Origin: Kineosporia corallincola
Lineage (GTDB): Bacteria > Actinomycetota > Actinomycetes > Actinomycetales > Kineosporiaceae
DNA length: 64,000 bases
Assembly: GCF_018499875.1 (NCBI RefSeq)
Contig: NZ_JAHBAY010000002.1
Coordinates: 124,001 to 188,000, forward strand
Reading direction: 5' to 3'
Shown: piece after piece, positions 9,450-59,827 of the stretch
How the letters are laid out: every line of letters starts with the position of its first letter
Numbering within the stretch: position 1 is the first letter of the stretch
Program-made: the position numbers and the translations under genes
The notes under the pieces: model-generated
The model's database searches: none
The model's input: only the letters and a program-made list of their open reading frames with translations
What the model was told of the DNA's origin: nothing

Positions 9450-9675
9450 GACAACCACTGCGCAAGTATGCCTGCTGCCAGAGTCCAGAACTGCCGCCGA
9501 TCTGAACCAGCCGGTCCGCACGGCCCGGCGCGTTCGGTCCAGCTCACTCCTGGGGCAGGCCGAAGTCCCGCACCCCGGTACGGGCCGTAGTCCGCGCCCG
9601 TCGCGGACCGAACCCAGCGGCGTCCCTCCCCGACGGACGACGGCGCCAGAGTCAGGGCATGTGGTCGTGCCCAAA

Positions 9676-9715
9676 CGCTGACGGGCACATCCTGCGGAGG
9701 ATGTGCCCGTCAGCG
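9676..9715 (-). terminator. 18-bp perfect hairpin terminator of the hibernation-factor gene
   Basis: A perfect 18-bp inverted repeat (arms 9676-9693 and 9698-9715) with a four-base loop, lying 24 bases past the stop of the ribosome hibernation gene. It has no T-tail, as is usual for actinobacterial terminators. The symmetry would also stop transcription from the other side. Confidence 0.8.
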
Positions 9716-9738
9716 CTGAATACTCGGCGGAACCCGGT

Positions 9739-10107: not shown

Positions 10108-10209
10108 GTCTACCTCCGTTGCGATCTTGACGCTGTACGTGAGCGTTCCACAGACCCGGCGATGTCGCGACGGGAGACGTCAGCACACCCCCTGACCTGC
10201 GTCGACGGA

Positions 10210-10857: not shown

Positions 10858-10877
10858 GGGCCCAGCTTAAACGAAAT

Positions 10878-10892
10878 TGAGAACGATTATCA
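10878..10892. promoter_or_regulatory. Zur-like operator between aztA and aztB
   Basis: TGAGAACGATTATCA is a 7-1-7 imperfect palindrome in the 56-base gap between two divergent zinc-uptake genes (half-sites TGATAAT and TGAGAAC, five of seven matching). It resembles the TGATAATNATTATCA-type boxes bound by the zinc repressor Zur, and its A+T content stands out. A single box could repress both directions when zinc is plentiful. No zur gene is in the window. Confidence 0.65.
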
Positions 10893-10913
10893 TTCATGTG
10901 TAAGGTGCGGATC

Positions 10914-40140: not shown

Positions 40141-40157
40141 ACGGGGCCCCACCCCTC

Positions 40158-40187
40158 TTGTCCTGACGAACAGAGCTTGTATATTTC
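40158..40187 (+). promoter_or_regulatory. promoter and candidate operator before the hexonate transporter
   Basis: TTGTCC (-35, 40158-40163) and TATATT (-10, 40180-40185) are spaced by 16 bases. The -10 lies within CTTGTATATTTC (40176-40187), which matches the CTTGTATACTAG element at the manD promoter over the first eight bases, and both are followed by TCTGC. This suggests a second, co-regulated promoter inside the operon. Confidence 0.55.
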
Positions 40188-40245
40188 ATCTGCCACACAA
40201 GGGTGTCGTGTTGGGGCGCCCGGTCGATGAGCAAGGGAGCAATCG

Positions 40246-41631
40246 ATGAGCACTGAAGCGTCGGCCGTGAACGGCACGGCCCCGCCGGCGCGGTCCACCC
40301 GGGACCTGTCCCGGGCCGCGATGTCCGGATGGCTCGGCACCGCCATGGAATTCATGGACTTCCAGCTGTACTCGCTGGCCGCCGGCCTGGTCTTCAACAC
40401 CATCTTCTTCCCCGACGTCAGCCCCGCGATCGGCCTGATCGCGGCGATGGCCACCTACGGCGTCGGCTACTTCGCCCGGATCGCCGGCGCGTTCTACTTC
40501 GGGCGGATGGGCGACACCATCGGCCGCAAGAAGGTCCTGTTCATCACCATCGCGATGATGGGCGGCTCGACCACCCTGATCGGCGCGCTGCCCACCTACC
40601 AGGCCATCGGCATCCTGGCCCCGATCCTGCTGGTGCTGCTGCGCCTGGTGCAGGGCTTCGGCGCGGGCGCCGAGATCGCCGGTGCCACGGTCATGCTCGT
40701 GGAGTACGCGCCGAAACGCCGCCGCGGCCTGATCTCCTCGCTGGTCGCCCTCGGCACCAACACCGGAACCCTGGTGGCCACCGGCATCTGGGCGGTCCTG
40801 CTGGCCGTGCTGAGCGACGAGCAACTCCAGAGCTGGGGCTGGCGGATCCCGTTCCTGGCCAGCTTCGTGCTGCTGGTCTTCGCGCTGTGGGTGCGCCGTA
40901 ACGTCAAGGAGAGCCCGGCGTTCGAGGGCCGCGACGACGTGGTCGACGGCGTCGCCCTGGACCGGGCGGAGCTGAAGAAGGCCGAAACGGCACACGGGCA
41001 GAGCAAGCTCGAGGCCGGGCTGAAGCAGCGCAAGGGCCGGGCGTTCGTGCTGGCCCTGCTGCTGCGCCTGGGCCAGGCCGGCAACTCCGGCCTGATCCAG
41101 ACCTTCCTGGTCGGCTACATCAGCAGCACTCTGGCCATGGACAAGGCCGTCGCCACCGACGCCCTGCTGATCGGTGCCGCCACCGGGTTCGTCACCGTGC
41201 CGGTCATCGGCATGCTCAGCGACCGCTTCGGCCGCCGCCCGGTCTACATGCTGATGAGCGGCCTGTCGGTGCCGCTGGCCTTCCCGGCCCTGCTGATGAT
41301 CACCAGCGGCAGCAACTCCACCCTGATGCTCGGCATGATCCTCGGCTACAACGTCTCGGTGCTCGGCCTGTTCGCCGTCGAGAACGTCACCATGTCCGAG
41401 ATGTTCGGCGGCCGTAACCGGTTCACCCAGGTCGGCGTGGCCAAGGAACTGGGCGGCATCCTCGGTGTCGGCATCGGCCCGACCATCGCCGCCGCCCTCA
41501 CCGCCGCCACCGGCAGCTGGTGGCCCGTCGCCGTCATGCTCATCGTCTACTCGCTGATCACCTTCGTCACCGCCTACCTCGCCCCCGAGGTGCGCGACCG
41601 TGACTTGTCCGCCCTGGAGGACGCCGCATGA
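40246..41631 (+). CDS. MFS transporter, metabolite:H+ symporter (MHS) family
   Basis: A 461-residue permease with about 12 spans. MEFMDFQLYSLAAGLVFNTIFFP, RIAGAFYFGRMGDTIGRKKVL, RLVQGFGAGAEIAGATVMLVEYAP and RGLISSL are MHS-family signatures (ShiA/ProP/citrate carriers). Between the operon's enzymes, it most likely brings in the starting sugar acid with protons. ATG 40246 follows AAGGGAG; the nine bases CGATGAGCA around the start also occur 18 bases upstream. Its stop overlaps the dehydrogenase start (ATGA). Confidence 0.9.
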   Translation: MSTEASAVNGTAPPARSTRDLSRAAMSGWLGTAMEFMDFQLYSLAAGLVFNTIFFPDVSPAIGLIAAMATYGVGYFARIAGAFYFGRMGDTIGRKKVLFITIAMMGGSTTLIGALPTYQAIGILAPILLVLLRLVQGFGAGAEIAGATVMLVEYAPKRRRGLISSLVALGTNTGTLVATGIWAVLLAVLSDEQLQSWGWRIPFLASFVLLVFALWVRRNVKESPAFEGRDDVVDGVALDRAELKKAETAHGQSKLEAGLKQRKGRAFVLALLLRLGQAGNSGLIQTFLVGYISSTLAMDKAVATDALLIGAATGFVTVPVIGMLSDRFGRRPVYMLMSGLSVPLAFPALLMITSGSNSTLMLGMILGYNVSVLGLFAVENVTMSEMFGGRNRFTQVGVAKELGGILGVGIGPTIAAALTAATGSWWPVAVMLIVYSLITFVTAYLAPEVRDRDLSALEDAA

Positions 41632-42650
41632 GGGCCGCCGTGGTGCACGGTGCGCGCGACCTGCGCATCGACGAACTGCCCGATCCCGAGCCCGGCGAGG
41701 GCGAGGTGCTGATCGCCGTCGAGTGGGGCGGGATCTGCGGGTCGGACACCGCCTACTACCGCCATGCCGCCTCCGGCACCGCGAAACTGAAGCATCCGCT
41801 GGTGCTCGGGCACGAGATCGCCGGGCGCATCGCGAGACTCGGCGACGGTGTGACCGGGCTGCACGAGGGCCAGGCGGTCACCGTGCACCCGGCCACGCTG
41901 GTCGGCGACGGGCTGATGCCCGAGCGGCTGGCCGGGCGCACCAACCTGTACGCGCCCTGCCGCTACTTCGGCTCGGCCGCGTTCGACCCGCACACCGACG
42001 GCGGCTTCAGTCAGTACCGCACCGCCCGCGCCGACCAGATCCGGGTGCTGCCCGAGCAGGTCGGCACCCGGCAGGGCGCCCTGGCCGAACCACTCGCGGT
42101 GGCCCTGCACGCCGCCGGGCGGGCCGGGAACCTGCGCGGCAGGACGGTTCTGGTGAACGGGGCCGGCCCGATCGGCTCGCTGGTGGTGGCCGCCGTGAAG
42201 TTCCTCGGCGCCGGCACCGTGATCGCCTCCGACGTCAGCGACCAGGCCCTGGCGATCGCCGCGAGGATGGGCGCGGACGCCATCGTGAACGTGGCCTCGC
42301 AGCCGCTGCCGGACGACGTCGAGACCGTGTTCGAGGCCTCCGGCTCACCTCGCGCCCTGGGCGCGGTGCTGCGGGCCACGGCCCGGGGCGGCACCCTGGT
42401 GCAGGTCGGCAACCTGCCCGGCGCCGAGATCCAGGCCGTGCTGGGCGATCTGGTCACCCGCGAGATCACCTGGACCGGCTCGTACCGGTTCGTCGACGAG
42501 ATCACCGACGCGGTCGTGGCCCTGGGTGCCGGCCTCGACGTCACCCCGCTGATCACGCATAGCTTCGACCTGGAACAGGCGGTAGAGGCGATGGACGTGG
42601 CACTGGATCCGGCCAGTGGCAGCAGTAAGGTCATGCTCCGGATCGGATGA
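41628..42650 (+). CDS. idnD: L-idonate/L-gulonate 5-dehydrogenase-like (IdnD/RspB), zinc-dependent
   Basis: A 340-residue medium-chain dehydrogenase. The catalytic zinc site is GGICGSD, GHE and the later AEPLAVALHA. The NAD site reads VNGAGPIGSLVVAAVKFLGA. RYFGSAAFDPHTDGGFSQY is nearly diagnostic of L-idonate 5-dehydrogenase. The four-cysteine structural zinc loop is not evident (only one Cys in LYAPCRYF). In RspB systems the same type of enzyme oxidises L-gulonate to D-fructuronate. Starts within the transporter stop (ATGA). Confidence 0.85.
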   Translation: MRAAVVHGARDLRIDELPDPEPGEGEVLIAVEWGGICGSDTAYYRHAASGTAKLKHPLVLGHEIAGRIARLGDGVTGLHEGQAVTVHPATLVGDGLMPERLAGRTNLYAPCRYFGSAAFDPHTDGGFSQYRTARADQIRVLPEQVGTRQGALAEPLAVALHAAGRAGNLRGRTVLVNGAGPIGSLVVAAVKFLGAGTVIASDVSDQALAIAARMGADAIVNVASQPLPDDVETVFEASGSPRALGAVLRATARGGTLVQVGNLPGAEIQAVLGDLVTREITWTGSYRFVDEITDAVVALGAGLDVTPLITHSFDLEQAVEAMDVALDPASGSSKVMLRIG

Positions 42651-42684
42651 TGTGAGGCATGATCCGCATCGAGGGAACGGAAGT

Positions 42685-43686
42685 GTGAACGTGGTTGTGA
42701 CGGGTGGCCGGGGTACCGGCGTGGTCACTCTCGGCGAGACGATGGCACTGCTGACGCCGCCGCCGGCCCCCCGCCTGCGCGACGGCGCCGCGATGACCCT
42801 GGGCATCGGGGGAGCAGAGTCGAACGTCGCGATCGCCCTGGCCCGGCTGGGATTCGGCAGCACCTGGATCAGCCGGGTCGGCGACGACGACTTCGGCACC
42901 CTGATCACCCGTGAGCTGCGGGCCGAGGGCGTCACCGTGCTGGCCGAGCGCGACCCGGCGGCCTTCACCGGGATGATGGTGAAGGAGGCCCGGGGCGGGC
43001 GCACCCTGCGGGTGCGCTACTACCGCAAGGGCAGCGCCGTGTCCCGGCTGTCGGTCTCCGACGTGGAGCGTTATGCCGGGGTGATCGCCGCCGCCGACGT
43101 CCTGCACGTCACCGGCATCACCCCGGCCCTCGGGCCGGCACCCGCGCAGTCCGTGCTCGCTGCCGTCGACATCGCCCGCGAGCACGGCACTTTCGTGTCC
43201 TTCGACGTCAACTTCCGCTCCGCCCTGTGGGCCCGCGAACAGGCCCAGCCGGTGCTGGCCGACCTGGCGCGCCGCGCGGACCTGACCTTCGCCGGGCCGG
43301 AGGAGGCCGCGCTGCTGCTCGGCGCCGACCCGTTCGCCGTCCATACGTTTGAGGACGGCGAGAAGCTGGCCCGCGAACTCGCCGCCGCCTTCGGTGCCGG
43401 GATCGTGCTGAAACTCGGTGCCCTGGGCGCGATCACGCTCCAGGACGAGGACGCGCACCACGGCCCGACCACGCCGATCGTGGTCACCGACCCGGTCGGC
43501 GCCGGCGACGCGTTCGTCGGCGGCTACCTCGCGGCCCTGCTGGAACAGCGCCCGCCGCTGGAGTGCCTGTCGCTGGCCAACCGCATCGGCGGTGCGGTCT
43601 GCCAGGCCCCCGGCGACTGGGAGGGCCTGCCCACCCGCGCCGAACTGCCCGCCCTCGGCGTGACCGGTGCCGAGGTCGAACGCTGA
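42685..43686 (+). CDS. kdgK: 2-keto-3-deoxygluconate kinase, PfkB family
   Basis: A 333-residue ribokinase-like sugar kinase. GIGGAESNVAIALARLG is the substrate-binding signature, and DPVGAGDAFVGGYLAALL the C-terminal PfkB motif with the catalytic Asp. In this operon it should phosphorylate 2-keto-3-deoxygluconate (made by ManD) to KDPG. GTG 42685 follows GAGGGAA about seven bases upstream. It is 34 bases after the dehydrogenase. Confidence 0.88.
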   Translation: MNVVVTGGRGTGVVTLGETMALLTPPPAPRLRDGAAMTLGIGGAESNVAIALARLGFGSTWISRVGDDDFGTLITRELRAEGVTVLAERDPAAFTGMMVKEARGGRTLRVRYYRKGSAVSRLSVSDVERYAGVIAAADVLHVTGITPALGPAPAQSVLAAVDIAREHGTFVSFDVNFRSALWAREQAQPVLADLARRADLTFAGPEEAALLLGADPFAVHTFEDGEKLARELAAAFGAGIVLKLGALGAITLQDEDAHHGPTTPIVVTDPVGAGDAFVGGYLAALLEQRPPLECLSLANRIGGAVCQAPGDWEGLPTRAELPALGVTGAEVER

Positions 43687-43757
43687 GGGGCTCTCGTCGT
43701 CCCCACGCACTTTGCCGGTAACCCCCCCGTACCAGCTGACGTCTCAGGAGATCCTTC

Positions 43758-44390
43758 GTGTCCGCACCGCTGCTCGCCGCCCATCCCGTCGTCCCCGTCG
43801 TCGTGATCGACCACCCCGACCAGGCCGTACCTCTCGGGAAGGCCCTGCTGGCCGGGGGGATCGCGGTGATGGAGGTGACGCTGCGCACCGACGCCGGCCT
43901 GGAGGGCATCCGCCGTCTCGGCGCGCTGGAGGGCATGACCGTCGGCGCCGGGTCGGTGCTCACCCCCGGCCAGGTGGATGAGGTGGTTCAGGCCGGTGCG
44001 ACGTTCGTGGTCAGCCCCGGCCTGAACGCCGAGGTGGTGCGCCGCGCGCAGGAACTCGGCGTGCCCGCCCTGCCCGGTATCGGCAACGCCAGCGACCTGA
44101 TGACGGCGGTGTCGCTCGGGCTGCGCGAGGTCAAGTTCTTCCCGGCCGGTCTGCTCGGCGGCCCGGCCATGATCAAGGCCCTGTCCGCGCCGTTCGCCGG
44201 GATGACGTTCATGCCCTCCGGCGGGGTCAGTCTGGCCAACCTCGGCGACTACCTGGCCCTGCCCTGCGTGCCGGCGATCAGCGGCAGCTGGATGGTGGAG
44301 CGGGCCCTGATCAACGCGGGGGAGTGGGATGCGATCACGAAGCTGGCGGCGGAGGCGGTGGACGCGGCGCGGGCGGCCCTGGGCCGGTAG
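43758..44390 (+). CDS. eda: KDPG aldolase (2-dehydro-3-deoxy-phosphogluconate aldolase)
   Basis: A 210-residue class I aldolase splitting KDPG into pyruvate and glyceraldehyde 3-phosphate. The acid/base Glu is in VMEVTLRT, the Schiff-base Lys in REVKFFPA, and the phosphate-binding loop in MPSGGVSLAN. GTG 43758 follows AGGAG at seven bases. It closes the operon. Some members also act on 4-hydroxy-2-oxoglutarate. Confidence 0.93.
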   Translation: MSAPLLAAHPVVPVVVIDHPDQAVPLGKALLAGGIAVMEVTLRTDAGLEGIRRLGALEGMTVGAGSVLTPGQVDEVVQAGATFVVSPGLNAEVVRRAQELGVPALPGIGNASDLMTAVSLGLREVKFFPAGLLGGPAMIKALSAPFAGMTFMPSGGVSLANLGDYLALPCVPAISGSWMVERALINAGEWDAITKLAAEAVDAARAALGR

Positions 44391-44450: not shown

Positions 44451-47400
44451 GTGGCCGTGCGCTCGGTGTATGTCTCCTCCACCTTCCGTGACCTGAAAGA
44501 CCTCAGGTCCAGCCTGAACGACACCATCCGGCGGATGAACCTGCTCGACGTCGCGATGGAGCACTACAACGCGGAACCCGGCCCGGCACTCGACGTCTGC
44601 GTGCAGGACGTCGGTGCCTGCGACGTCTACGTGGGCGTCTTCGCCTGGCGCTACGGGGATGTGCCCGAGGGGCAGACCCGGTCGGTCACCGAGGCCGAGT
44701 ACCGGGCGGCGAAGGCGGCCGGCAAGCCCTGCCTGATCTTCCTGCTGCACGAGGACGCACCCTGGCCGCGGTCCCAGCAGGACCGCGACCCCACCCGGAT
44801 CGAAGCCCTGCGCGAGGAACTCACGCGCGACCACACGGTCAAGTACTTCGGCCTCGGGCAGCAACTGCCGGAACTGGTGGCCACGGCGCTGCACCAGTGG
44901 ATCCTGGAGAACGCCGGCGACGAGACCTCCAGCCTGGGGCTGCTCGATCCGGCTCTGCTGACCGGGTACTACAAGCGCCTCGACCAGGAGTACGGCGGGC
45001 TCGACCTGGCCGCCCTGACCCCGCCGGAGCACGACGACGGCCTGCCGGTGCGGTTGCAGACGGTCTTCGTGCAGCCCGACGTGCGCGTCGACCCGCCGCC
45101 GGTCGAGGTGCCCCGCGAACTGCTCCAGCGCTTGCAGATCGCCGGTGAGCTCGACGAGATGTCGCTTCCCGACGGAGTGAGCATGGACGATCTGCGCGCG
45201 GCCCAGCAGGCCTACCGGGACAAGCCGCGCCGGCCGGTGCTGCCGGTGGTGATGGCCGAACGCTGCCTGGTGGTGCTCGGCGACCCGGGGGCCGGCAAGT
45301 CGACCCTGGCCCGGATGCTCGTCCTCGACCTGATCACCCCCGGCTCGCCGTGGATCCCGTCGCTGGCCGGGCATCTGCCGGTGCTGGTGGAGCTGCGTGA
45401 GTACGCCGCCGCCCGGGCCCGTGGGCAGCGCAGCGTGCTCGACTTCATCGAGGAGAAGGCGGATTCCGGGCTCGGCCTGACCCGGTCCGTGCTCGAGGGA
45501 TACCTGAGGGCGGAAGGGCCCGCACTGGTGGTGTTCGACGGTCTGGACGAGGTGTTCGAGCCTGCCGAGCGGGCCGAGATCACCCGGCAGATCGCCGGGT
45601 TCGCCGAGCGGCATCCGTCCGCTCGGGTGCTGGTGACCAGCCGCACCTGGGGATACGAGCGTCGCCGCCTGGCCGCCGCGGGTTTCGCGCACCACACTCT
45701 GCAAGACCTGGAGCGGGGGCAGATCGAGCAGTTCCTCACCGGCTGGTACCAGAGAGTCCTGGGCGAGCGCCCGCAGGAGGCCGCGCACCGGCGCGACCAC
45801 CTGATCCAGGTGATCGACTCGTCCCGGCCGATCCTCGAACTGGCCGGGAACCCGCTGCTGCTCACGGTTCTGGCGATCATCGGCAAGGGGCAGCAACTGC
45901 CCCGCGAACGGTGGAAGGCCTACGAGCAGGCCACCCGGGTGCTGGTGGAGAACTGGGACGTCAGCCGGCACCTGCGCGACCGGCAGGTGGAGACCAACTT
46001 CATCACGGAGGACGACAAGCGGGAGCTGCTGCGGCGTCTGGCCTGGAACATGCAGACCGGGGCGTTCGGCAAGGCCGGCAACTTCGTGCACCGCGACGAA
46101 TTGCAGAAGCTGTTCGAGGACTACCTGGTCAACCGCTATCGGCAGTCGCCGGCCCAGGCCAAGGCGGTCGCGGTGGCGATGATCGACCAGTTCCGCCATC
46201 GCGACTTCGTGCTCAGCCGGTGGGGCCCGGACCTGTACGCCTTCGTGCACCGCGCCTTTCTGGAGTTCTTCTGCGCCGACGCCGTGCTCCAGCAGTTCCA
46301 GCACGCGCAGACCATGACGCTCGACGAGCTCGGCGATCTCTACGTCGCCCGGCGGGACGACCCGACCTGGCGGGAGATCCTGCGGCTGCTGGTGTCCCAG
46401 CTGGCCGAGACACATGTGGCGAAGCTGCTGAGGCGCCTGCTGGATGCGGACCGGCCGTGGGAGGACACGCCGCACCACTTCTGGTCTCCCGAAGGGCTCC
46501 GCCTGGCCGTGGAGTGCCTCCCCGAGGTGCGCAACCTCCAGGGGGCCCCGGAGATGGCGGACGTGGCCGGGGCGGTCCTGGCCGAGATCATCCTGCTGCT
46601 GGAATGCTATGGCGACGGGCAGAACAGCCGGGTGGTGTCGTTGCTGCACACGGCATCATCCGTCGCCACGGACCTCGGCCCTGGCTGGCCGGGCCGGGAG
46701 ATCTACGCCGACTGGTTCTCCCGACGCGGAGGCCAGCTCCTGGGGAGCGCACTGCTGGTCCAGACCTGTGAGCTCCTGGACTCCCTGTACGAGGACCGCC
46801 CCCCGGTGGTTCTGGCCATGGCGTCGGTGGCGGCGAGCCGGGATCGCCGTGCCGTCGCAACGATCAGGCGCCTGACCGAGGACTCGGGCAGCACGGTCTC
46901 CACCGTCTCCGCCGGACAGGAGCTGGATCCGGCTCAGCGCTCCGCCCTCCTCGCGCAGGCCCGGCACGATGATCACTGGCCCGTGCGGATGTTCGCGCTG
47001 GTCATGCTGGATCACACCGACCCGGAGGGGAGCGAGACCGATGCCCTCCTGCGTGAGCGGTTGGAGAATGACTCCAGCGGTGAGGTTTTCGGGTTCACCG
47101 TCCGGGCTCTCCTGCGGCGCCATCCGGGCCAGGACGACGTGGTGCAGGCGGCAGTCGGCCGGGCCGTCGCGGAGAGCCGATCCCGGCCGGTGACGGTGTA
47201 CACCCCCGCCGAGCAGGGCGAGACGTTCATCGAGGTGGTGGCCGACGCTCTCGAACCCGAATGCCCCGGCCATCCGGTGGTGATCGCACTCCGCGTGGTC
47301 GACGGAGTTCTCCTGACCGATCCCGATCAGATCCTGGCTCTTCTGGAACCGGTGCGAGAGGGGGGAGATTTGCTGACCGCCACTCTGCGCTTCCTGGCGG

Positions 47401-48995
47401 ATTCATCGTTCTACTACGAGACCCGGCACAACGCCCTCGCGCTGCTCGACGCGCTCTTCCCGCAGGATCCGGACACCGAGGCGATGCTGTATGAGCGGAT
47501 GACGAACGACCCCGATGACGATGTGTTCGCCCTCACCGTCAAAGCCGTCCTGCGGCGGGGCATGCGGGAACGGCCGGCCGTCCTGCGCTTCGTCGTCGAC
47601 CGCGTGGTCGGTATGGCCGACGACACGAATCTGCGGGATCGTTTCGTCAAGCGAGCCTCCGAACTGGTTCTGAGCGCCGGGGACATGGGACTGCCTCTGT
47701 TGCTCAGCTTCCCGGAACGAGGCCCCTACTTCCTGGACATCGTTGACGACGACCTCCAGAGCCGTCTGGAACCGGTTCGCCGCCTCGGCGATCCCGAGCA
47801 GGTCGTGGCCGGCCTGCACCACCTCGCGGGTACCTCGGCCGTGAACTATCTCCGGCACAACGCCCTGCTCCTGCTGGACACGCTGTTGCCACAGGACGCC
47901 GGAGTCGAGGCCACGCTGCGCGACCGGGTGCTGAACGACCCGGACCGGCTGGTCTTCGGGGTCGCGGTCGACGCCCTGCACCGGCGGTCCCGGGACCCCC
48001 GACAGGTGAGTGCGCTCGTCATGGAGCGTGCCGCCGGGCTCGGTCTCGGCACTGGTTTCGCCGCGCGGGCGGCAGACACGCTGGAGCCCGATGATCCAGG
48101 ACACCCGCTGGTTCTGGTTCATGCCGACGGAATCCTCCTGGAGGACGAGGCCGATCTCGGGGCGCGCGTCCAGCACCTCCGGCAGGCTCCGGACCCGGAT
48201 GCTGCGCAGGCCGCGTTGCTCGTGCTCGCGGGGCGGGCCGAGGATGGCTGGGCGCGGCACAACGCGTTGCTTCTGCTGGACCGGCTGGAATCTGAAACCC
48301 CCGGCTTGAAAACGCTTCTGCGCGATCGTCTGGCCGAGGACGACAGCGGGACGGTGGTCGCGCTCGCGGCGAGCATGCTGCTGCGTCGTTGCCCCGACGA
48401 GCGCGCCGAACTCCTCACCGTTCTGTCCGGGCGGATCGGTCCCGATCGCTCGTGGGAGGCAGCGGCACAGGTCCTGGCCGCGTACGAGCCGGATCACCCG
48501 ATGCTGTTCGCCTACGCGGAAGGGCACCTGATCGACGACGGGATCGACAGCAGTCTCGGCCGCCTTCGCGAAGCGGCGGGCCGGGGCCCGGTCGTCGCCG
48601 GGCTGAGAACCCTGGCACTCGGCGCCGATGCCGCCGAGCATCGGCACAACGCGCTGATGCTGCTGGACCAGCTGTCACCCGCCGACCCCGAGGTGGAGGC
48701 TCTGCTGCGTGATCGCCTGCACGGCGATCCGGACGCCACAGTGCTCGAGCTCGTGGCCGGGGCTCTCCTGCGGCGTCATCCCGATCAGCACCGGGAACTG
48801 CTGGAAACGGTCCGGAACCGGGCGCTCGCGGTCGGCATCGACGACCCCCTCCGGTCGGCTGCCGCGAGGTTCCTGGCCGCCCACGACCCCCACGTCACCA
48901 GACGCGTCACCCGGCAGGATCTCGGTGCCGTGGACCGGCCGCTCATCAGCGACCTGCCGACGCTCACCTTCCAGGTGGCCGGGTCCACGTTCTGA
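44451..48995 (+). CDS. NLR-like DUF4062-NACHT protein with C-terminal HEAT-like repeats
   Basis: A 1514-residue cytoplasmic protein. Residues 4-90 are DUF4062 (VYVSSTFRDLKDLR..LN, DVYVGVFAWRYG), a TIR-related Rossmann-like effector or sensor domain. Then comes a NACHT P-loop NTPase: Walker A GDPGAGKS (277-284) and Walker B VVFDGLDE (360-367). After a helical NACHT-associated region (LAWNMQ..FVHRAFLEFFCA, near residues 525-605), residues 845 onward carry five long repeats starting R(H/M)NAL-LLD. Bacterial NACHT NLR-like proteins are known antiphage proteins, so a defence or signalling role fits. GTG 44451 begins within the family motif; the ribosome binding site is weak. The start of a membrane-protein gene lies 100 bases after the stop. 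Confidence 0.85.
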   Translation: MAVRSVYVSSTFRDLKDLRSSLNDTIRRMNLLDVAMEHYNAEPGPALDVCVQDVGACDVYVGVFAWRYGDVPEGQTRSVTEAEYRAAKAAGKPCLIFLLHEDAPWPRSQQDRDPTRIEALREELTRDHTVKYFGLGQQLPELVATALHQWILENAGDETSSLGLLDPALLTGYYKRLDQEYGGLDLAALTPPEHDDGLPVRLQTVFVQPDVRVDPPPVEVPRELLQRLQIAGELDEMSLPDGVSMDDLRAAQQAYRDKPRRPVLPVVMAERCLVVLGDPGAGKSTLARMLVLDLITPGSPWIPSLAGHLPVLVELREYAAARARGQRSVLDFIEEKADSGLGLTRSVLEGYLRAEGPALVVFDGLDEVFEPAERAEITRQIAGFAERHPSARVLVTSRTWGYERRRLAAAGFAHHTLQDLERGQIEQFLTGWYQRVLGERPQEAAHRRDHLIQVIDSSRPILELAGNPLLLTVLAIIGKGQQLPRERWKAYEQATRVLVENWDVSRHLRDRQVETNFITEDDKRELLRRLAWNMQTGAFGKAGNFVHRDELQKLFEDYLVNRYRQSPAQAKAVAVAMIDQFRHRDFVLSRWGPDLYAFVHRAFLEFFCADAVLQQFQHAQTMTLDELGDLYVARRDDPTWREILRLLVSQLAETHVAKLLRRLLDADRPWEDTPHHFWSPEGLRLAVECLPEVRNLQGAPEMADVAGAVLAEIILLLECYGDGQNSRVVSLLHTASSVATDLGPGWPGREIYADWFSRRGGQLLGSALLVQTCELLDSLYEDRPPVVLAMASVAASRDRRAVATIRRLTEDSGSTVSTVSAGQELDPAQRSALLAQARHDDHWPVRMFALVMLDHTDPEGSETDALLRERLENDSSGEVFGFTVRALLRRHPGQDDVVQAAVGRAVAESRSRPVTVYTPAEQGETFIEVVADALEPECPGHPVVIALRVVDGVLLTDPDQILALLEPVREGGDLLTATLRFLADSSFYYETRHNALALLDALFPQDPDTEAMLYERMTNDPDDDVFALTVKAVLRRGMRERPAVLRFVVDRVVGMADDTNLRDRFVKRASELVLSAGDMGLPLLLSFPERGPYFLDIVDDDLQSRLEPVRRLGDPEQVVAGLHHLAGTSAVNYLRHNALLLLDTLLPQDAGVEATLRDRVLNDPDRLVFGVAVDALHRRSRDPRQVSALVMERAAGLGLGTGFAARAADTLEPDDPGHPLVLVHADGILLEDEADLGARVQHLRQAPDPDAAQAALLVLAGRAEDGWARHNALLLLDRLESETPGLKTLLRDRLAEDDSGTVVALAASMLLRRCPDERAELLTVLSGRIGPDRSWEAAAQVLAAYEPDHPMLFAYAEGHLIDDGIDSSLGRLREAAGRGPVVAGLRTLALGADAAEHRHNALMLLDQLSPADPEVEALLRDRLHGDPDATVLELVAGALLRRHPDQHRELLETVRNRALAVGIDDPLRSAAARFLAAHDPHVTRRVTRQDLGAVDRPLISDLPTLTFQVAGSTF
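46986..48890 (+). repeat. five imperfect protein-coding repeats in the NACHT gene
   Basis: A block beginning R(H/M)(N/F)AL-x-(L/M)LD starts at 46986, 47424, 47853, 48255 and 48642. Each is followed by L.P.DP..E..LR(D/E)R(L/M)..D, then A-L-(L/H)RR. The periods are 146, 143, 134 and 129 codons. The units are too diverged at the DNA level to be recent duplications and look like HEAT-type helical solenoid turns. Confidence 0.75.
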
Positions 48996-48997
48996 TC

Positions 48998-49016
48998 CAC
49001 CGGCATCGCGCCGGTG
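48998..49016 (+). terminator. short hairpin after the NACHT gene
   Basis: A 7-bp perfect stem (CACCGGC / GCCGGTG) with a five-base loop directly follows the stop codon. It may end or attenuate the NACHT transcript before the membrane-protein gene at 49096. Confidence 0.45.
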
Positions 49017-49095
49017 AGCGTGGCCGGGCCGGACGATGACCTGCGCCACATCCGCTGAAGCCGGTCATCGGCCCGCCGACCGGGGGCCGGTGATC

Positions 49096-50391
49096 ATGAC
49101 CGCGCCCACCCTGACGTCGTCGACCCGGCGGGCGGCCTGGCAGGACCTCGTGGGCCTGGGGCTGTACCGGGAGGCGGCCGAGCTGCTGTCGGCGGACGAG
49201 CCCGCCGAACGGGTGGACGGGGTGCGCACCGCGCTGCTGGCCGGTGAGCTCCCGATGGCCCAGCGGTTCCTGCGCGCACTCGGCGGCAACGCCGGGCGGC
49301 CCGGGCTGTACGAGCTGCTGGAAGGATGCGTCGCCCTGGCCGCCGGGGACGCGGGACAGCTGGACGCCACCGAACGGATCCTCGCCCAGACGGAGGCCGG
49401 CCCCGAGGACTTCGGGGTGTTCGCCGTGGTCGCCGCACCGTACGACCTGTACCGGGCCGGCGTGGCGGCACAGGCCGCGATCGACACCGGCCCGGCCGTG
49501 ATCGCGGTCGTGGCCGCCGCGGAGGCGGCCGAGGGCGACCCGGTGCAGGCCTTCGTCCGGCTGGAGTCCGTCGGGCCGACACCGGGGGACGACCCGGTGC
49601 GGCGCACGCTGCACCTGCTGAACCGCCATGGTCGGCACGACGCCGCGCAGGGACTGGTGGCGCTGGCGGTCCAGGTGCCTGGTCTCACCCGCGAGCGGCG
49701 GGCGTACTGGGCGAACCTGGCCGAGCAGGTGATCCCCGTCCGCCGGTGGGACAGGACGCTGCGCGTGCTGCGCTGGATGGTCGGCCCGGTCCTGATTCTC
49801 CTGTTCCGGTTGTTCGGCGTGATCATCTGGCTCGGCCTGACGTACGCCTGGACCCGCTGGGTGCCGCTGCCCGGCCTGGATCGCGAGACTTCGCTGCTGG
49901 TAAGAGGTTACCGATCACGGCAGTGGCGCAGTGTGGAGCTGAACGCCCGCGACATGATCGTGTTCCTGGGTGGTGGGCTGGCCGGTATGGTCGCGTCGGC
50001 GGGGTTGGGCCGCAACGCCTCGGATACCGTGCTGGCGTTCCTTCTGCTGGGCGGCCTGATCGTCGGCTCGCTGTCGGCCGTGACCGTGCGCCGGGTCGTC
50101 CTGCCCCGGCGCAGGGAGCGCCGTGCCCTCGCGCGGCACCAGGAGTCACTGCGCGATCTTCGCTGCCGCTGCCTGCCCGTGGCCTGGTTCCTCGGACCGG
50201 ACACGCGCTATTACGTGGATCATCATCTGGCCCCGGTCGGCCAGGTCGCGCCGGGTGGCTCATGGCGGGTGCTGGGATGCTCGCAGACCGGTGCCGTCTT
50301 CCTCGACTGGCCGGCTGCCGCCACGACCGTTCGCGCCCAGCACCTGCTGGCGCCGCTGGAGTCGGAACCGACTGTCAATCCTTATCTTTGA
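49096..50391 (+). CDS. hypothetical membrane protein with N-terminal helical repeats
   Basis: About 431 residues. Residues 1-230 form a helical Ala-rich region (LVGLGLYREAAELLSADEPAERV, LLAGELPMAQRFLRALGG, EGDPVQAFVRLES), reminiscent of TPR-type repeats. Then two closely spaced spans (MVGPVLILLFRLFGVIIWLGLTYAW) and two further spans (MIVFLGGGLAGMVAS, AFLLLGGLIVGSLSAVTV), ending in a cytoplasmic C-terminal domain with YYVDHH and a WRVLGCSQTGAVFLDW strand. ATG 49096 is chosen, nine bases after GGGGG; GTG 49090 is an alternative. It follows the NACHT gene by 100 bases on the same strand and may be its partner; function unknown. Confidence 0.6.
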   Translation: MTAPTLTSSTRRAAWQDLVGLGLYREAAELLSADEPAERVDGVRTALLAGELPMAQRFLRALGGNAGRPGLYELLEGCVALAAGDAGQLDATERILAQTEAGPEDFGVFAVVAAPYDLYRAGVAAQAAIDTGPAVIAVVAAAEAAEGDPVQAFVRLESVGPTPGDDPVRRTLHLLNRHGRHDAAQGLVALAVQVPGLTRERRAYWANLAEQVIPVRRWDRTLRVLRWMVGPVLILLFRLFGVIIWLGLTYAWTRWVPLPGLDRETSLLVRGYRSRQWRSVELNARDMIVFLGGGLAGMVASAGLGRNASDTVLAFLLLGGLIVGSLSAVTVRRVVLPRRRERRALARHQESLRDLRCRCLPVAWFLGPDTRYYVDHHLAPVGQVAPGGSWRVLGCSQTGAVFLDWPAAATTVRAQHLLAPLESEPTVNPYL

Positions 50392-50503
50392 GGCTCCGGT
50401 GAAGCAGGGGACGCGGCGATGAACGCGCTGGGGTTGCGGTAACCAACAGTCCGGTAGCCGCGGTGAACGGCAAATTACCTGGCGGCGGGATTGAAGGCTT
50501 CAG

Positions 50504-50671
50504 ATGGCTAAAGATCGAGCACTCATTAATAATTGGCGAATTGCTGCAAAGGTTGTGCATTTTGTCCCTTCATTCAGCTGGGGCACCTACGGAGTCGGCC
50601 CTGATTCGGCCGTTCTGAAGTGCTTGGTTGATTACAACATCAAGTTCGTCATCCACATCCCAGTACCGTAA
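50504..50671 (+). CDS. small hypothetical protein, 55 residues
   Basis: An open frame of 55 codons, ATG 50504 to TAA 50671, preceded by GAAGG six bases upstream. It reads MAKDRALINNWRIAAKVV, then FVPSFSWGTYGVGPDSAVLK and ends NIKFVIHIPVP. The composition is protein-like and AT-richer than the neighbours. It ends 19 bases before the next gene. No family is recognised; it could be a real small protein, or a remnant of one. Confidence 0.35.
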   Translation: MAKDRALINNWRIAAKVVHFVPSFSWGTYGVGPDSAVLKCLVDYNIKFVIHIPVP

Positions 50672-50690
50672 GCGAGGCATACAGTTGGAC

Positions 50691-51749
50691 ATGAGCACAC
50701 CACGCGCTCCTATGACACCCGAGGACTACGGGGGCGACCCGTCGGAAGACGCTACGCGTCTTCAGGATTGGTGCGCCTTTGTCCCTGTGGGGATCGACTG
50801 GTTACGTGAGCAGTCGGGTGTGCAACTTGATGGCAGTGTCGAGAGTCTGGGTCCGTTGTGGGGCTGGGTGATCAAGCGGCTGGCGCAGGATGATGTCTGG
50901 GCTTCTGTCGGTGAGCTTCCGGCATGGGCGTTGCGGCGGCCCTATCGGTATCGGGTCGGGGAGCTGCGACCTGAGGTGGTGTGGTTGTGGGGTGCTCTGG
51001 CGGCGTACTTCGGTGAGGTCTTCATCGCCCGGGCTGCGGCGCCGGAGGTGGAGTGGAGGATTCTGCGGCATCCGCTTGAGAGTGTCCAGGAGCAGGGAGA
51101 TTTTGTGTTGCTGCGCCCTGCACATATCAAGCGCCGGAAGCCGCGTCATTGGACGAGTGCGCACCTGGTCATCGGCAACCTGATCGCTGGACAGGTGAAG
51201 AGGCCAGGCCCGCGCGATCGACCCCAGGAGGGTCGCAATGATTCTGACCTGCTGAAAAGGGTTTTCTTCCAGGCTCTGGAGTGGTTCGGTGAGGTGGTTC
51301 CGGAGCTGGAACCGTCGGATCCTGTGCCCGGTCTTGAGCCTGCTGACACCTTGCTCGGGAGGCTTGATGCTCCGGAGGTCGCCGCCGCCCGGGCGGTGTG
51401 CCCGTCCCGATGGGTCAGTATTCCCGAAGGTCTGGACGATGACGACTTCACGTTCACCACTGAAGAGGTCTGTCAAGAGGTGGGTTTCGGATCGGGTGAT
51501 GAGGGTGCGTGGTCTTTGTTTCTGCATGACAGCATCAGGCCGGTCGTCGACGTGGATGTCGATGATGCTCAGGATCCTCTGCTGAGGACGCTTCGTGCGC
51601 ACCCGTTGGTGGTCGAGGCCGAGCATTCCGATCGTGAGCTCTACGAATGGCGCACCAGGGGTGAACCTTCCGAGGGGGAGATGGCCGCGCTGGCCCTGAC
51701 CGGGCTGGCGGCGGCTCAGGAGCGGGCTCTGCATCTGGCCCGTGGCTGA
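50691..51749 (+). CDS. hypothetical protein, acidic, lower-GC
   Basis: 352 residues, no domain I can name. It has a compact N-terminal part (WLREQSGVQLDGSVESLGPLWGWVIKRLAQ, then LWGALAAYFGEVFIARAAAPEVEWRILRHP) and an acidic C-terminal half (LDDDDFTFTTEEVCQEVGFGSGDEG). No signal peptide or spans. ATG 50691 has only GAGG upstream; TTG 50685 is an alternative start. Base composition is lower in G+C than neighbours, with T-ending codons, as in the DUF4262 gene. Standing next to the NACHT region, it may be transferred cargo. Confidence 0.6.
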   Translation: MSTPRAPMTPEDYGGDPSEDATRLQDWCAFVPVGIDWLREQSGVQLDGSVESLGPLWGWVIKRLAQDDVWASVGELPAWALRRPYRYRVGELRPEVVWLWGALAAYFGEVFIARAAAPEVEWRILRHPLESVQEQGDFVLLRPAHIKRRKPRHWTSAHLVIGNLIAGQVKRPGPRDRPQEGRNDSDLLKRVFFQALEWFGEVVPELEPSDPVPGLEPADTLLGRLDAPEVAAARAVCPSRWVSIPEGLDDDDFTFTTEEVCQEVGFGSGDEGAWSLFLHDSIRPVVDVDVDDAQDPLLRTLRAHPLVVEAEHSDRELYEWRTRGEPSEGEMAALALTGLAAAQERALHLARG

Positions 51750-51784
51750 ACGTCCTGGTGCGATGAGGAATCTGCCCGTGCCGA

Positions 51785-51815
51785 GGCCCCCGGTCGTGGT
51801 GAACGACCGGGGGCC
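51785..51815. terminator. bidirectional hairpin terminator
   Basis: A perfect 13-bp stem (arms 51785-51797 and 51803-51815) with a five-base loop, followed by AGGGTTTT on the plus strand. It lies between convergent genes ending at 51749 and 51839, serving both. Confidence 0.85.
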
Positions 51816-51838
51816 AGGGTTTTCGCCGGGATCTGGGA

Positions 51839-52339
51839 TCAGGCGAACTTCCAGTTGTGGTAGATGGCGCCGCTGCACTCGACCGTGTAGACGTCACCGG
51901 CGAAGTTGCTGCTCAGGCACCAGCCGGTACCGACGTTGATGATCTGGGTTCCGCCGCTGACGGTTCCGGTCACACGCCGCCAGTTCTGGTACACCGAGCC
52001 ACTGCACGGCACGGTATACACGTCGCCCGAGGACCCGTTGCCGAAGTTGCTGCTCAGGCACTTCGAGGTGCCGCTGTTGATGAACTCGTTGTTCCCGTCG
52101 ACGATGTACCAGTCGTGGTAGATCGAGCTGCTGGCCGCCACCGTGAACACGTCACCGGTGGTGCCGTCGCCGAAGTTGGAGCTGAGCTGGAGCCCGATGC
52201 CGATGTTGGTGACGTTGCGCACCACGTCGGCCCTGGCCGGCAGCGGGTTGACCAGGGTGACCAGGGTGGCCGCGAGCGTGAAAAGAAGTGCCAGGAAACC
52301 CATCCGGCGCATACGGGCACTGTCGATCGTCTTCAGCAT
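51839..52339 (-). CDS. secreted ricin B-type lectin-like protein
   Basis: A 166-residue exported protein. The signal peptide covers about residues 10-37, with a cleavage-like LPARA-D. The mature part is three repeats of about 40 residues, each with LSSNF(G/A), GDV(F/Y)TV and Y(H/Q)(D/N)W, which suits a beta-trefoil of the ricin B type where QxW is usual. It has no catalytic domain, so it is likely a stand-alone carbohydrate-binding or adhesion protein. ATG 52339 follows GGAGGGG. Shares the terminator at 51785-51815. Confidence 0.75.
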   Translation of the reverse strand: MLKTIDSARMRRMGFLALLFTLAATLVTLVNPLPARADVVRNVTNIGIGLQLSSNFGDGTTGDVFTVAASSSIYHDWYIVDGNNEFINSGTSKCLSSNFGNGSSGDVYTVPCSGSVYQNWRRVTGTVSGGTQIINVGTGWCLSSNFAGDVYTVECSGAIYHNWKFA

Positions 52340-52518
52340 TTTGTCCCCTCCAGGAAGAATGTCGCTGCGTGATCATGTCCAGCGACGGCGAACCGGGGGT
52401 GAACACGAGATGCCGTTGACGCGGCCGGGTGGCGTCATGATGACGAGTGGCGATCGCCTGGTCCCGGCACGTGATCGGTTGTGTGAGTGGGTGTGTGGCC
52501 CTCCACGGTCAGACGGTC

Positions 52519-53586
52519 TCAGGGGGCGGCGGACAGCGCCTCGCCGATGAAGTCGCCCGGCACCAGGTCGTCGAACGCCGGGGGCTGCTCGATCAGCCCG
52601 CTGTCCTGGTGGAAGGTCGCGGAGGTGCCGTAGCCCTCGGCGTCGGGGGTGGGGTCGTCCGGCACCTCGGCCTGAAGGATCGGCAGGATGTCGGCCACCG
52701 CCTTCGGGTCCATCGTCTCCTGGTACTCCTGGAACAGCTCGGTGGTCTTCGCCGTGTCCTCGTTGATCAGGGTCTCGGCCCTCTTCAGGGCGCGCAGGAA
52801 CGCCTGCACGGCCGGGCCCTTTCGGTTGATGACCGACCGGGTGGTGAAGGCGACGCCGTGCGTCTGGCCCTTCATCTCCGGCACGTCACCCCGGGCGGGA
52901 GAGATGAAAAGCCTTCCCACACCCGTCACCTCGGCCTGCTGGCCGATCGGCTGGAAGAACGACAGGGCGTCCACCCGCCCGGCCTTGAGCGCACCGATCG
53001 AGGCGGAGGGGTCGGAGCCCAGGTTGACCATGGTGATGTCGGTCTCGGCGTCCATGCCCTGTTGTCTGAGCAGGTACGTCAGCAGGGCCTCGGTCCCGCT
53101 GCCCGGCCCGGTGATCCCGATGTTCTTGCCCTGGAGGGCCTTCACCCGCTCGGCCAGCGGCTTGTCGTCCTCACTGGTGGGAATGCCGTCACCGGCGACG
53201 ATGTCGACGTAGAACTCGTCGGTCAGGGTCCCGATCAGCTGGGCGTCGTCGTTCACGCCGTAGAGGTTGTACACGTCGGTCATGACGCCACCGGCCACGT
53301 CGATGCTGCCGGACTGGAGGGCCGCCGCCGACTTGGCGCCGGTCCCCAGACGCGGGCGCTCACCCAGGGTGAGTCCCTCGTCCTCGAAATAGCCTTCCTG
53401 CTCGGCCACGAAGAACGGGAAGAAGGCGACCGAGTCGCTGGTCTGGCCCAGGTTCAGGCGCATGGCGTCGGCGCCGGTGGCCGGCTCGTCCGACCCCCGG
53501 TCGGCGCAGCCGGCCGCCAGCAGAGCCAAGGCGGCCACGAAAGCCACTGCACGAAAACGGGTTATGGACGTTCTGGCGGTTCTCAT
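52519..53586 (-). CDS. ABC transporter substrate-binding lipoprotein, NMT1/SsuA/TauA-like
   Basis: A 355-residue solute-binding protein with lipobox LAAGC. The mature part begins LNLGQTSDSVAFFPFFVAEQEGYFEDEGLTL, the NMT1/THI5-like pattern, and continues GITGPGSGTEALLTYLLRQQG. Such proteins bind sulfonates, pyrimidines, taurine or aromatic acids. ATG 53586 follows AAGGAG at nine bases. It is the last gene of a seven-gene minus-strand operon with acid-degrading enzymes, so the ligand is probably an aromatic or multi-carboxylated acid rather than a sulfonate. Confidence 0.88.
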   Translation of the reverse strand: MRTARTSITRFRAVAFVAALALLAAGCADRGSDEPATGADAMRLNLGQTSDSVAFFPFFVAEQEGYFEDEGLTLGERPRLGTGAKSAAALQSGSIDVAGGVMTDVYNLYGVNDDAQLIGTLTDEFYVDIVAGDGIPTSEDDKPLAERVKALQGKNIGITGPGSGTEALLTYLLRQQGMDAETDITMVNLGSDPSASIGALKAGRVDALSFFQPIGQQAEVTGVGRLFISPARGDVPEMKGQTHGVAFTTRSVINRKGPAVQAFLRALKRAETLINEDTAKTTELFQEYQETMDPKAVADILPILQAEVPDDPTPDAEGYGTSATFHQDSGLIEQPPAFDDLVPGDFIGEALSAAP

Positions 53587-53642
53587 CGCTGCGGTCTCCT
53601 TCGACCGGTCGGGCACAGGCACAGGCAGAGAGACTGAGGAGT

Positions 53643-57604: not shown

Positions 57605-57622
57605 GGGAGAACCTTTCGGAGG

Positions 57623-58681: not shown

Positions 58682-59827
58682 ATGAGGCGCAGCGTCTACG
58701 ACGACGACCACGAGGCGTTCCGGGGATCGGTGCGGGAGTTCCTGCGGCGTGAGGTGCTTCCGCACACCGAGGAGCACGCGCGGGCCCACGGGTTCGGCCG
58801 GGACCTGTGGCGGGCCGCCGGCAAGCAGGGTCTGCTCGGGCTGGAGGTGCCGGAGGAGCACGGCGGTGCGGCGGCGGGGGACTACCGGTTCAACGCGGTG
58901 CTGGTGGAGGAGCTGGCCGCGGTGAACCTGGCCCTGGCCTCCAGCCTGAGCATCCACTTCGACGTGGTGGCAGGCTATCTCGCCGGCCTGACCACCCCGG
59001 AGCAGCAGGCCCGCTGGCTACCGGGCATCGCCTCCGGCGAGAGCGTGGCGGCGATCGCGATGACCGAGCCGTCGGGTGGCTCCGACCTGGCGGCACTGCG
59101 CACCAGCGCGGTGCGCGAGGGCGACGGCTGGCGGATCAACGGCTCGAAAACCTTCATCACGAACGGATACTCGGCCGACCTGATCCTGGTCGCCGCCCGC
59201 ACCACGCCGGATGCCGGGGCCCGGGGCATCTCGCTGTTCGTCGTCGAGGCCACCCGCGAGGGCTTCTCCCGCGGCCGTCGCCTGGACAAGGTGGGCATGC
59301 CCGAGGCCGACACCGCCGAGCTGGTGTTCGACGACGTGCTGGTGCCGGCACAGAACCTGGTCGGCACCCTGGACCAGGGCTTCCGGCAGATGATGGTGAA
59401 CCTGCCCCGCGAGCGGATCGGTGCGGCCGTGGCGAACCTGGCCCACGCCCGCGCGATCCTCGACGAGACGCTGGTCTACGTGAAGGACCGGGAGGCGTTC
59501 GGGCAGCCGATCGGCTCGTTCCAGCACAGCAAGTTCCTGCTCGCCGACCTGGTCACCCGCGCCGAGGTGACCCAGGCCTACGTCGACCGGTGCGTGATCG
59601 CCCATGCCGAAGGGGATCTCACCGCCGTCGACGCGGCCAAGGCCAAATGGTGGACGGCGGACGTGCAGGGCCAGATCCTCGACGCCTGTCTCCAGTTGCA
59701 CGGCGGCTACGGCTACATGAACGAGTACCGCGTGGCGCGGGCGTGGAAAGACGCCCGGGTGACCCGGATCTGGGCCGGGTCGAACGAGATCATGAAGGAG
59801 ATCATCGGCCGCGACCTGGGTCTGTGA
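58682..59827 (+). CDS. acyl-CoA dehydrogenase
   Basis: A 381-residue flavoenzyme oxidising acyl-CoA at C2-C3. FAD/acyl motifs AIAMTEPSGGSDLAAL, INGSKTFITNGYSADL and the C-terminal RIWAGSNEIMKEIIGRDLGL, with the catalytic-region Glu, are all typical. The final helix shows LQLHGGYGYMNEY. Start at ATG 58682 (MRRSVYDDDH), with no strong ribosome binding site; the frame stays open to 58508 but that extension is low-complexity. It is divergent from the acid-degradation operon across 273 bases. Confidence 0.9.
   Translation: MRRSVYDDDHEAFRGSVREFLRREVLPHTEEHARAHGFGRDLWRAAGKQGLLGLEVPEEHGGAAAGDYRFNAVLVEELAAVNLALASSLSIHFDVVAGYLAGLTTPEQQARWLPGIASGESVAAIAMTEPSGGSDLAALRTSAVREGDGWRINGSKTFITNGYSADLILVAARTTPDAGARGISLFVVEATREGFSRGRRLDKVGMPEADTAELVFDDVLVPAQNLVGTLDQGFRQMMVNLPRERIGAAVANLAHARAILDETLVYVKDREAFGQPIGSFQHSKFLLADLVTRAEVTQAYVDRCVIAHAEGDLTAVDAAKAKWWTADVQGQILDACLQLHGGYGYMNEYRVARAWKDARVTRIWAGSNEIMKEIIGRDLGL

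What the first reader, a model, noticed from the sequence alone, without database searches (positions are those of the whole stretch)
44451..48995. DUF4062-NACHT-repeat protein: an NLR-like candidate defence gene
Seen: one 1514-residue protein joins a DUF4062 domain, a NACHT NTPase with intact Walker A and B motifs, and a long C-terminal repeat array, the same effector-switch-sensor order as animal NLRs. Known: bacterial NACHT NLR-like proteins block phage. Inferred: the DUF4062 domain is the effector and the repeats sense a phage product. The gene has no transposon or prophage context, so it could be a resident defence gene.
Basis: partly seen in the sequence, partly recalled or inferred. Interest (0 to 1): 0.75.

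Follow-up and report, generated by a model that had tools for sequence, protein, structure and literature searches.

The report
Bacterial NLR-like receptor with NADase domain
An actinobacterium carries a large gene built like an animal immune receptor, with a predicted NAD-destroying front end, a molecular switch and a helical repeat sensor; it most likely kills or stalls the infected cell to stop a virus, but nobody has tested it.

Summary
The gene is real: one 1514-residue frame (44451-48995, GTG start) with DUF4062 (residues 6-87), NACHT (272-432, Walker A and B intact) and five units of 129-146 residues (845-1514) that form a HEAT-like helical array. DUF4062 is no longer of unknown function. 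A 2026 preprint shows it to be a TIR-like NADase in an antiphage system (Swarozyc) and in human TEP1. A profile of 11 such domains finds both solved structures (8e-38, 5e-8), and the catalytic Glu is kept as E81. In relatives the same NACHT core carries a TIR domain instead of DUF4062, which independently supports the effector reading. The 'resident gene' idea is not upheld: none of five same-genus genomes has the gene, and it sits in a lineage-specific hot spot. About 31 kb away lies a second DUF4062-NACHT protein, with WD40 repeats and a TEP1-like front end, beside a SLATT protein. Some relatives show near-identical repeat arrays, as in fungal NLRs; this copy does not. Best reading: a stand-alone NLR-like abortive-infection receptor that depletes NAD+. 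NADase activity and phage defence are inferred, not shown. Novelty: a new variant of a known kind.

The parts
44451..48995 (+). DUF4062-NACHT-HEAT-like repeat gene, 1514 aa
44439..44444 (+). TAGCCT, a TAnnnT -10-like box ending 6 nt before the GTG start (leaderless promoter, predicted)
   Evidence: Seen; same box and spacing in Frankia. Of 102 called genes of this region 13 have such a box 6-8 nt upstream, about 0.9 expected from control offsets
44466..44711 (+). DUF4062 / TIR-like domain, residues 6-87 by Pfam (to about residue 151 by homology to KpSwz)
44691..44693 (+). E81, aligned to the Glu at KpSwz chain position 82, taken as catalytic E97 by an offset of 15 (inferred)
   Evidence: invariant in 11 of 11 aligned DUF4062 domains
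45264..45746 (+). NACHT NTPase domain, residues 272-432; Walker A 277-285 (45279-45305), Walker B 360-367 (45528-45551)
46416..46982 (+). helical stretch between NACHT core and repeats, residues 656-844; fastest diverging part (dN/dS about 0.65 over 656-840)
46983..48992 (+). five repeat units of 129-146 residues (start residues 845, 991, 1134, 1268, 1397), alpha-solenoid, HEAT-like; predicted sensor
43758..44390 (+). KDPG/KHG aldolase (eda), last gene of the conserved sugar-acid cluster; left edge of the hot spot
58682..59827 (+). acyl-CoA dehydrogenase that directly follows eda in two of five same-genus genomes; right edge of the first extra block
49090..50391 (+). 433-aa orphan with predicted membrane segments; partial paralogues elsewhere in the genome; not thought to be a partner

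Best explanation
A stand-alone, horizontally acquired bacterial NLR-like (STAND/bNACHT-type) immune receptor. At rest the HEAT-like C-terminal array holds the NACHT switch closed. An invader cue, most likely a phage protein, binds the array. The NACHT domain then exchanges nucleotide and oligomerises, bringing the N-terminal TIR-like DUF4062 domains together. These hydrolyse NAD+ with catalytic E81, and the cell stops growing or dies before phage is released. Shown here by sequence: domain order, intact motifs, TIR exchange on the same core, accessory location, repeat turnover in relatives. Shown elsewhere for relatives: DUF4062 NADase activity and antiphage defence. Inferred: ligand, oligomerisation, activity and phenotype of this protein.
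For: Profile of 11 DUF4062 domains finds KpSwz (8e-38) and the TEP1 TIR-like domain (5.3e-8) in the PDB; R67-Y68-G69, S78, E81 and E83 invariant in 11 of 11. DUF4062 hydrolyses NAD+ and stops phage in KpSwz (PMC13174449, text parts 1-3 of 6 read). NACHT cores 48-50% identical to residues 165-655 carry DUF4062 in L067-L069 and TIR_2 in L072 and L073; L073 also has a separate TIR gene just upstream. No full-length match in 5 of 5 same-genus genomes; extra block after eda. Only two DUF4062 matches in this 8.2-Mb genome, about 31 kb apart, the second beside a SLATT protein. Near-identical repeat arrays in two homologues: 2.5 x 432 nt at 95% in F. tisae, 10.7 x 102 nt at 98% in L067.
Against: No assay of this protein or of a full-length relative was found. 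Human NWD1, NWD2 and NPHP3, also DUF4062-NACHT, showed no NADase activity (PMC13174449). PADLOC gives only two weak matches over the P-loop (E 0.004 and 0.006). Neighbours of homologues look metabolic or developmental: dihydroxyacetone kinase, TauE, MMPL, SsgA. This copy's own repeats are diverged, not near-identical. The structure model of the N-terminal part is poor (pLDDT 44.6), so E81 in a pocket is not shown structurally.
Confidence: 0.68

Rival explanations
1. A STAND switch that regulates the cell's own physiology (development, stress or programmed death in a filamentous bacterium) rather than phage defence, with DUF4062 still an NADase.
For: Homologues are scattered in large-genome actinobacteria with metabolic and developmental neighbours such as SsgA; no defence island around them was resolved.
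Against: Patchy: no full-length match in all five same-genus genomes, in a hot spot of lineage-specific genes, with repeat turnover in some relatives; a developmental switch should be conserved within a genus.
Confidence: 0.17
2. DUF4062 here is a catalytically silent adaptor, as apparently in human NWD1, NWD2 and NPHP3, and works through protein contacts.
For: Three of four purified human DUF4062-NACHT proteins showed no NADase activity (PMC13174449).
Against: E81 and the RYG...S..E core are invariant in 11 of 11 bacterial domains; dN/dS about 0.38 in the domain; an enzyme-class domain (TIR) takes the same place in two relatives, though I did not test that those TIRs keep their catalytic residue.
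Confidence: 0.1
3. A chance or decaying fusion without function.
For: Codon-model score per codon is lower than for a neighbouring metabolic gene (463.3/1514 = 0.31 against 260.6/461 = 0.57 for 40246-41631), as for a recent arrival.
Against: No stop in 1514 codons; the same architecture at 56% identity in Frankia tisae under purifying selection.
Confidence: 0.03

Closest known systems
Swarozyc (KpSwz; PDB 10wc, 11cq, 11cv), DUF4062 TIR-like NADase antiphage protein
   Same: DUF4062 domain with the catalytic Glu in register
   Different: KpSwz has a short HTH/winged auxiliary domain that binds phage portal; here NACHT plus a HEAT-like array take its place; sequence matches are confined to the DUF4062 part
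Human TEP1 / NWD1 / NWD2 / NPHP3 (DUF4062-NACHT proteins)
   Same: DUF4062 next to NACHT, then (in most) repeats
   Different: HEAT-like array instead of WD40; bacterial; the neighbour 31 kb away (L039:7578-11852) is the closer TEP1 look-alike: front end phmmer 4.3e-8 to TEP1, then NACHT and WD40
Bacterial NLR-related proteins (bNACHT25 and relatives)
   Same: Effector - NACHT - sensor plan (passages of PMC12169576)
   Different: Those described in the passages carry DNase or undefined N-termini; no DUF4062 is named there
Actinobacterial TIR-NACHT-repeat proteins (L072, L073)
   Same: NACHT core about 49% identical; 34-residue repeats
   Different: TIR_2 domain in place of DUF4062
Fungal NLRs with high internal repeat conservation (Podospora; PMC4986451, passages)
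   Same: Repeat-number change and near-identical repeats in F. tisae and L067
   Different: HEAT-like, bacterial; the window copy itself is diverged (40% over its best 100 residues)

Membership tests
Swarozyc | DUF4062 TIR-like domain with catalytic Glu | tested here: met
Swarozyc | C-terminal portal-binding auxiliary domain | tested here: not met
   the significant matches stop at KpSwz chain residue 155-157 of 326; NACHT and repeats follow instead
Swarozyc | Antiphage NADase activity | not testable with these tools
   needs bench work
Bacterial NLR-related (bNACHT) proteins | NACHT domain with intact Walker A and B | tested here: met
Bacterial NLR-related (bNACHT) proteins | N-terminal effector and C-terminal sensor in one protein | tested here: met
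   architecture; effector and sensor roles inferred
Bacterial NLR-related (bNACHT) proteins | Phage defence | not testable with these tools
   -
Animal NLR proper | Leucine-rich repeats | tested here: not met
   no Pfam family at E <= 1 in the C-terminal 855 residues; helical model
TEP1/NWD-type DUF4062-NACHT proteins | DUF4062 before NACHT | tested here: met
TEP1/NWD-type DUF4062-NACHT proteins | C-terminal WD40 propellers (TEP1, NWD1) | tested here: not met
   no WD40; met by the neighbour L039:7578-11852
EruA (NCBIfam NF058535 antiphage NACHT) | Score at the curated cut-off (1000 bits) | tested here: not met
   30 bits over residues 357-509
HEAT-repeat proteins | Tandem helix pairs forming a solenoid | tested here: inconclusive

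The most novel reading that the evidence does not exclude
Filamentous actinobacteria keep a rapidly evolving class of NLR-like receptors in which a TIR-like NADase of the TEP1/Swarozyc type, a NACHT switch and a HEAT array are mixed freely (DUF4062 or TIR in front; HEAT or WD40 behind). Their arrays are rewritten by repeat turnover as in fungal NLRs. The locus here, with a DUF4062-NACHT-HEAT and a TEP1-like DUF4062-NACHT-WD40 protein in one hot spot, would be a bacterial setting in which the missing TEP1 question (what makes the NACHT switch on the NADase) can be tested with phage.
Probability: 0.33. Interest if true: 0.75.

Novelty: new variant of a known kind. Interest (0 to 1): 0.5.

Why it matters
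DUF4062 was reported to be an NADase in a 2026 preprint, in bacterial proteins with a small auxiliary domain and in human TEP1. The signal that would make the NACHT domain of TEP1 switch on the NADase is called unknown there. A bacterial DUF4062-NACHT receptor, with relatives in which a TIR domain replaces DUF4062 on the same core, gives a system in which the trigger could be found by escaper genetics. If the repeat turnover in relatives reflects sensing, these proteins would be bacterial counterparts of the fast-evolving fungal NLRs.

Tried and rejected
Partner gene: the 433-aa orphan directly downstream (49090-50391) was tested as a partner. It has partial paralogues on two other contigs of the same genome (C1 and, weakly, C4); no NACHT match lies on C1 and the one on C4 is about 294 kb away. 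Their neighbours were listed but not family-scanned. No plasmid match. Rejected as a partner. The 373-aa frame 50628-51749 has no family and was not called as a gene by my codon model.

Defence islands around homologues: 48 of 87 neighbour proteins of at least 90 aa (8 homologue loci in all; the 48 come from L067-L070 and L011, with 3 of L011's left out) were scanned with PADLOC as one set. 40 families matched, each by one member (PD-T4-6, mad6, WYL, HEAT-ARM_XIII and MkoA among the 25 shown). I did not resolve which protein each match came from; I think several are generic kinase or regulator models (recalled), so I claim no island and exclude none. Of the other 39 neighbours only the small TIR gene of L073 was scanned (it matches TIR models).

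Phage and prophage carriage: in phage records one weak match to residues 273-630; in viral contigs 98 pattern matches, none confirmed; on plasmids 87 records match, none covers 80% of the query.

Tree of the NACHT core (12 rows, 9 inner branches, 3 well supported, 4 open): the three N-terminal labels together are clustered (as low in 1 of 200 shuffles), but DUF4062 alone is not (76 of 500), so neither a single origin nor the direction of the exchange is claimed.

Diversifying selection: in a 12-unit array of L072 the nine most replaced positions have pN 0.42 against pS 0.28 (overall pN/pS 0.85). The nine were chosen after seeing the data, so this is a hint only.

High internal conservation as defined for fungal NLRs (85% over 100 residues): met by 2 of 14 proteins tested (L011, L067); L072 reaches 84; the window protein reaches 40 and fails.

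N-terminal fold: the model has mean pLDDT 44.6; I did not search with it. Its strand-helix order over residues 5-155 (five strands alternating with helices) agrees with a TIR-like fold, but that is weak. A Foldseek PDB search of the C-terminal model was not run; only the VIA-align second look was. Papers: EruA as an antiphage protein was not found (one search listed 8 of 19 papers with the word). The preprint's supplement could not be read, so its list of bacterial DUF4062 architectures is unknown to me.

Full report

What DUF4062 is. phmmer against the PDB finds one molecule with a good E-value, KpSwz (2.7e-6 with the whole protein, 1.7e-7 with residues 1-210). A profile of 11 DUF4062 domains finds KpSwz at 8e-38 and the TIR-like domain of human TEP1 at 5.3e-8. 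A preprint (PMC13174449; text parts 1-3 of 6 and figure legends read) reports that DUF4062 is a TIR-like NADase, that KpSwz stops phage by NAD+ depletion and needs E97, that the phage portal is its trigger, and that TEP1 is active whereas purified NWD1, NWD2 and NPHP3 were not. In the alignment, E81 of the window protein meets the Glu at chain position 82 of KpSwz; with the construct starting near residue 15 this is E97 (my inference from numbering). E81, E83, S78 and R67-Y68-G69 are invariant in 11 of 11 domains.

Relatives. The only confirmed hit of the pattern scan of the genome collection is Frankia tisae (L011; best segment 56% identity, residues 1-1514 matched). A search of 394 genomes of the class with the Frankia protein matched 18 at E <= 1e-20, own genome and F. 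tisae included; a search of 396 genomes of the phylum with the window protein matched 4, own included. In both only two candidates per genome were scored, so these are lower bounds. DUF4062 itself is patchy: 6 of 38 relatives, own included, and 3 of 14 control genomes. Six proteins combine DUF4062 and this NACHT: the window's, L011, L067, L068, L069 and the more distant L070, whose NACHT score (26.1 bits) is just under the cut-off of 26.7. In L072 and L073 the same core (48.9% and 49.1% identity to residues 165-655) follows a TIR_2 domain: 30.3 bits in L072; in L073 26.4 bits with 700 residues given and 29.8 with the first 159 alone, cut-off 28. L073 also has a separate TIR gene that overlaps its start. 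L071, L074, L075 and L076 have N-termini without a convincing family. So the NACHT core accepts DUF4062 or TIR at the same place, which is what one expects if DUF4062 is a TIR-like effector. The tree does not tell which came first.

Location. DNA matching window 40000-44385 is found in four of the five other genomes of the genus, nearly whole, and its last part (from 42546) in the fifth; in all five the match stops within about 13 nt of the end of eda. By gene order, eda is followed by the acyl-CoA dehydrogenase, the alcohol dehydrogenase and the sensor kinase in two genomes, by the last two in one, and by the kinase alone in two. Compared with the fullest of these, the window's genome has three extra blocks between these genes: 44451-58408 (this gene, the orphan, a ricin-lectin protein, an ABC/RraA/PIG-L/DUF6282 operon), 59849-67774 (sulfotransferase, AurF, carbamoyltransferase, transporter) and 68919-76626. 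The third block, outside the window, holds a SLATT-domain protein and, tail to tail with it, a 1425-aa protein with DUF4062, NACHT and WD40 repeats (L039:7578-11852). The DUF4062 of that protein is divergent (25.5 bits, 20 bits, cut-off 24.7), but its front end matches TEP1 at 4.3e-8. These are the only two DUF4062 matches in the genome, about 31 kb apart, and two of its five NACHT matches over the cut-off. None of the five same-genus genomes has a full-length relative; G002 has two partial matches to residues 351-417 and 483-758 elsewhere, and G004 has one other DUF4062 protein elsewhere. No transposase, integrase or phage family appeared among the hot-spot genes scanned; one called gene (63950-65284) was not scanned.

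Expression. TAGCCT ends exactly 6 nt before the GTG in the window and in Frankia, where the upstream gene is a different one. A TAnnnT box 6-8 nt before the start is also seen in L067, L068, L069 and L077, not in L070 nor before the starts used for L071-L076 (those starts are uncertain). In this region 13 of 102 called genes have such a box, against about 0.9 expected from other offsets. I read this as a leaderless transcript from the gene's own promoter; not tested.

Sensor turnover. The Frankia array has three units, two of them 92% identical; TRF reports 2.5 copies of 432 nt at 95%. L067 has 10.7 copies of 102 nt at 98% and L072 has 11.8 copies at 84%. Of 14 coding sequences run, 5 had a TRF array of period 60 nt or more; the window gene did not. 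Fungal NLRs are known for this (PMC4986451, passages). Between the window and Frankia copies dN/dS is about 0.15 in the NACHT core, 0.38 in DUF4062, 0.65 in the helical stretch before the repeats and 0.33 in the alignable repeats (dS is 0.9-1.5, so the figures are rough). The core is conserved and the C-terminal half diverges, as expected of switch and sensor.

Mechanism and limits. The best-supported account is an NLR-like abortive-infection receptor: array senses, NACHT switches, DUF4062 depletes NAD+. Steps shown only in relatives: NADase activity and phage defence of DUF4062. Steps inferred: ligand, oligomerisation, phenotype. Results against: metabolic neighbours of homologues, no resolved defence island, a poor N-terminal model, and inactive human DUF4062-NACHT proteins.

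Novelty. The library search for DUF4062 with NACHT lists 7 papers and for DUF4062 alone 9. By title and start of abstract none describes a bacterial DUF4062-NACHT receptor; of these only PMC13174449 was opened, without its supplement. The parts are known and this combination in bacteria appears undescribed in what I could search, hence 'new variant of a known kind'.

Noticed in passing
L039:7578-11852 (-), equal to window coordinates 71575-75852, beyond the window end: 1425-aa DUF4062-NACHT-WD40 protein, a bacterial TEP1/NWD1 look-alike (front end phmmer to TEP1 4.3e-8), tail to tail with a SLATT protein at L039:6597-7565 (+).
   Followed up: partly
L067:9679-10770: Near-perfect array: 10.7 copies of a 102-nt (34-residue) repeat at 98% inside a DUF4062-NACHT gene of 2233 or more residues.
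   Followed up: partly
L077:6931-10695 (-): DUF4062 (by alignment) joined to at least 14 WD40 repeats in a genome with the same genus label as the F. tisae match.
   Followed up: no
L073:7031-7426 and 7423-11193: A small TIR gene overlaps the start of a TIR-NACHT-repeat gene: two TIR domains in one apparent operon.
   Followed up: no
L068:5749-6618 (-): NYN nuclease plus OST-HTH/LOTUS protein just downstream of a DUF4062-NACHT gene.
   Followed up: no
L033 and L004: DUF4062 joined to NB-ARC/AAA-type STAND ATPases in other actinobacteria, with Leu in place of Thr before the catalytic Glu.
   Followed up: no
window 59849-63484 and onward: Lineage-specific block with AurF-like N-oxygenase, carbamoyltransferase and sulfotransferase, possibly a small natural-product cluster.
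   Followed up: no
G000, region of 102 called genes: TAnnnT boxes peak at exactly 6 nt before called starts (11 genes), a clear leaderless-transcript signal.
   Followed up: partly
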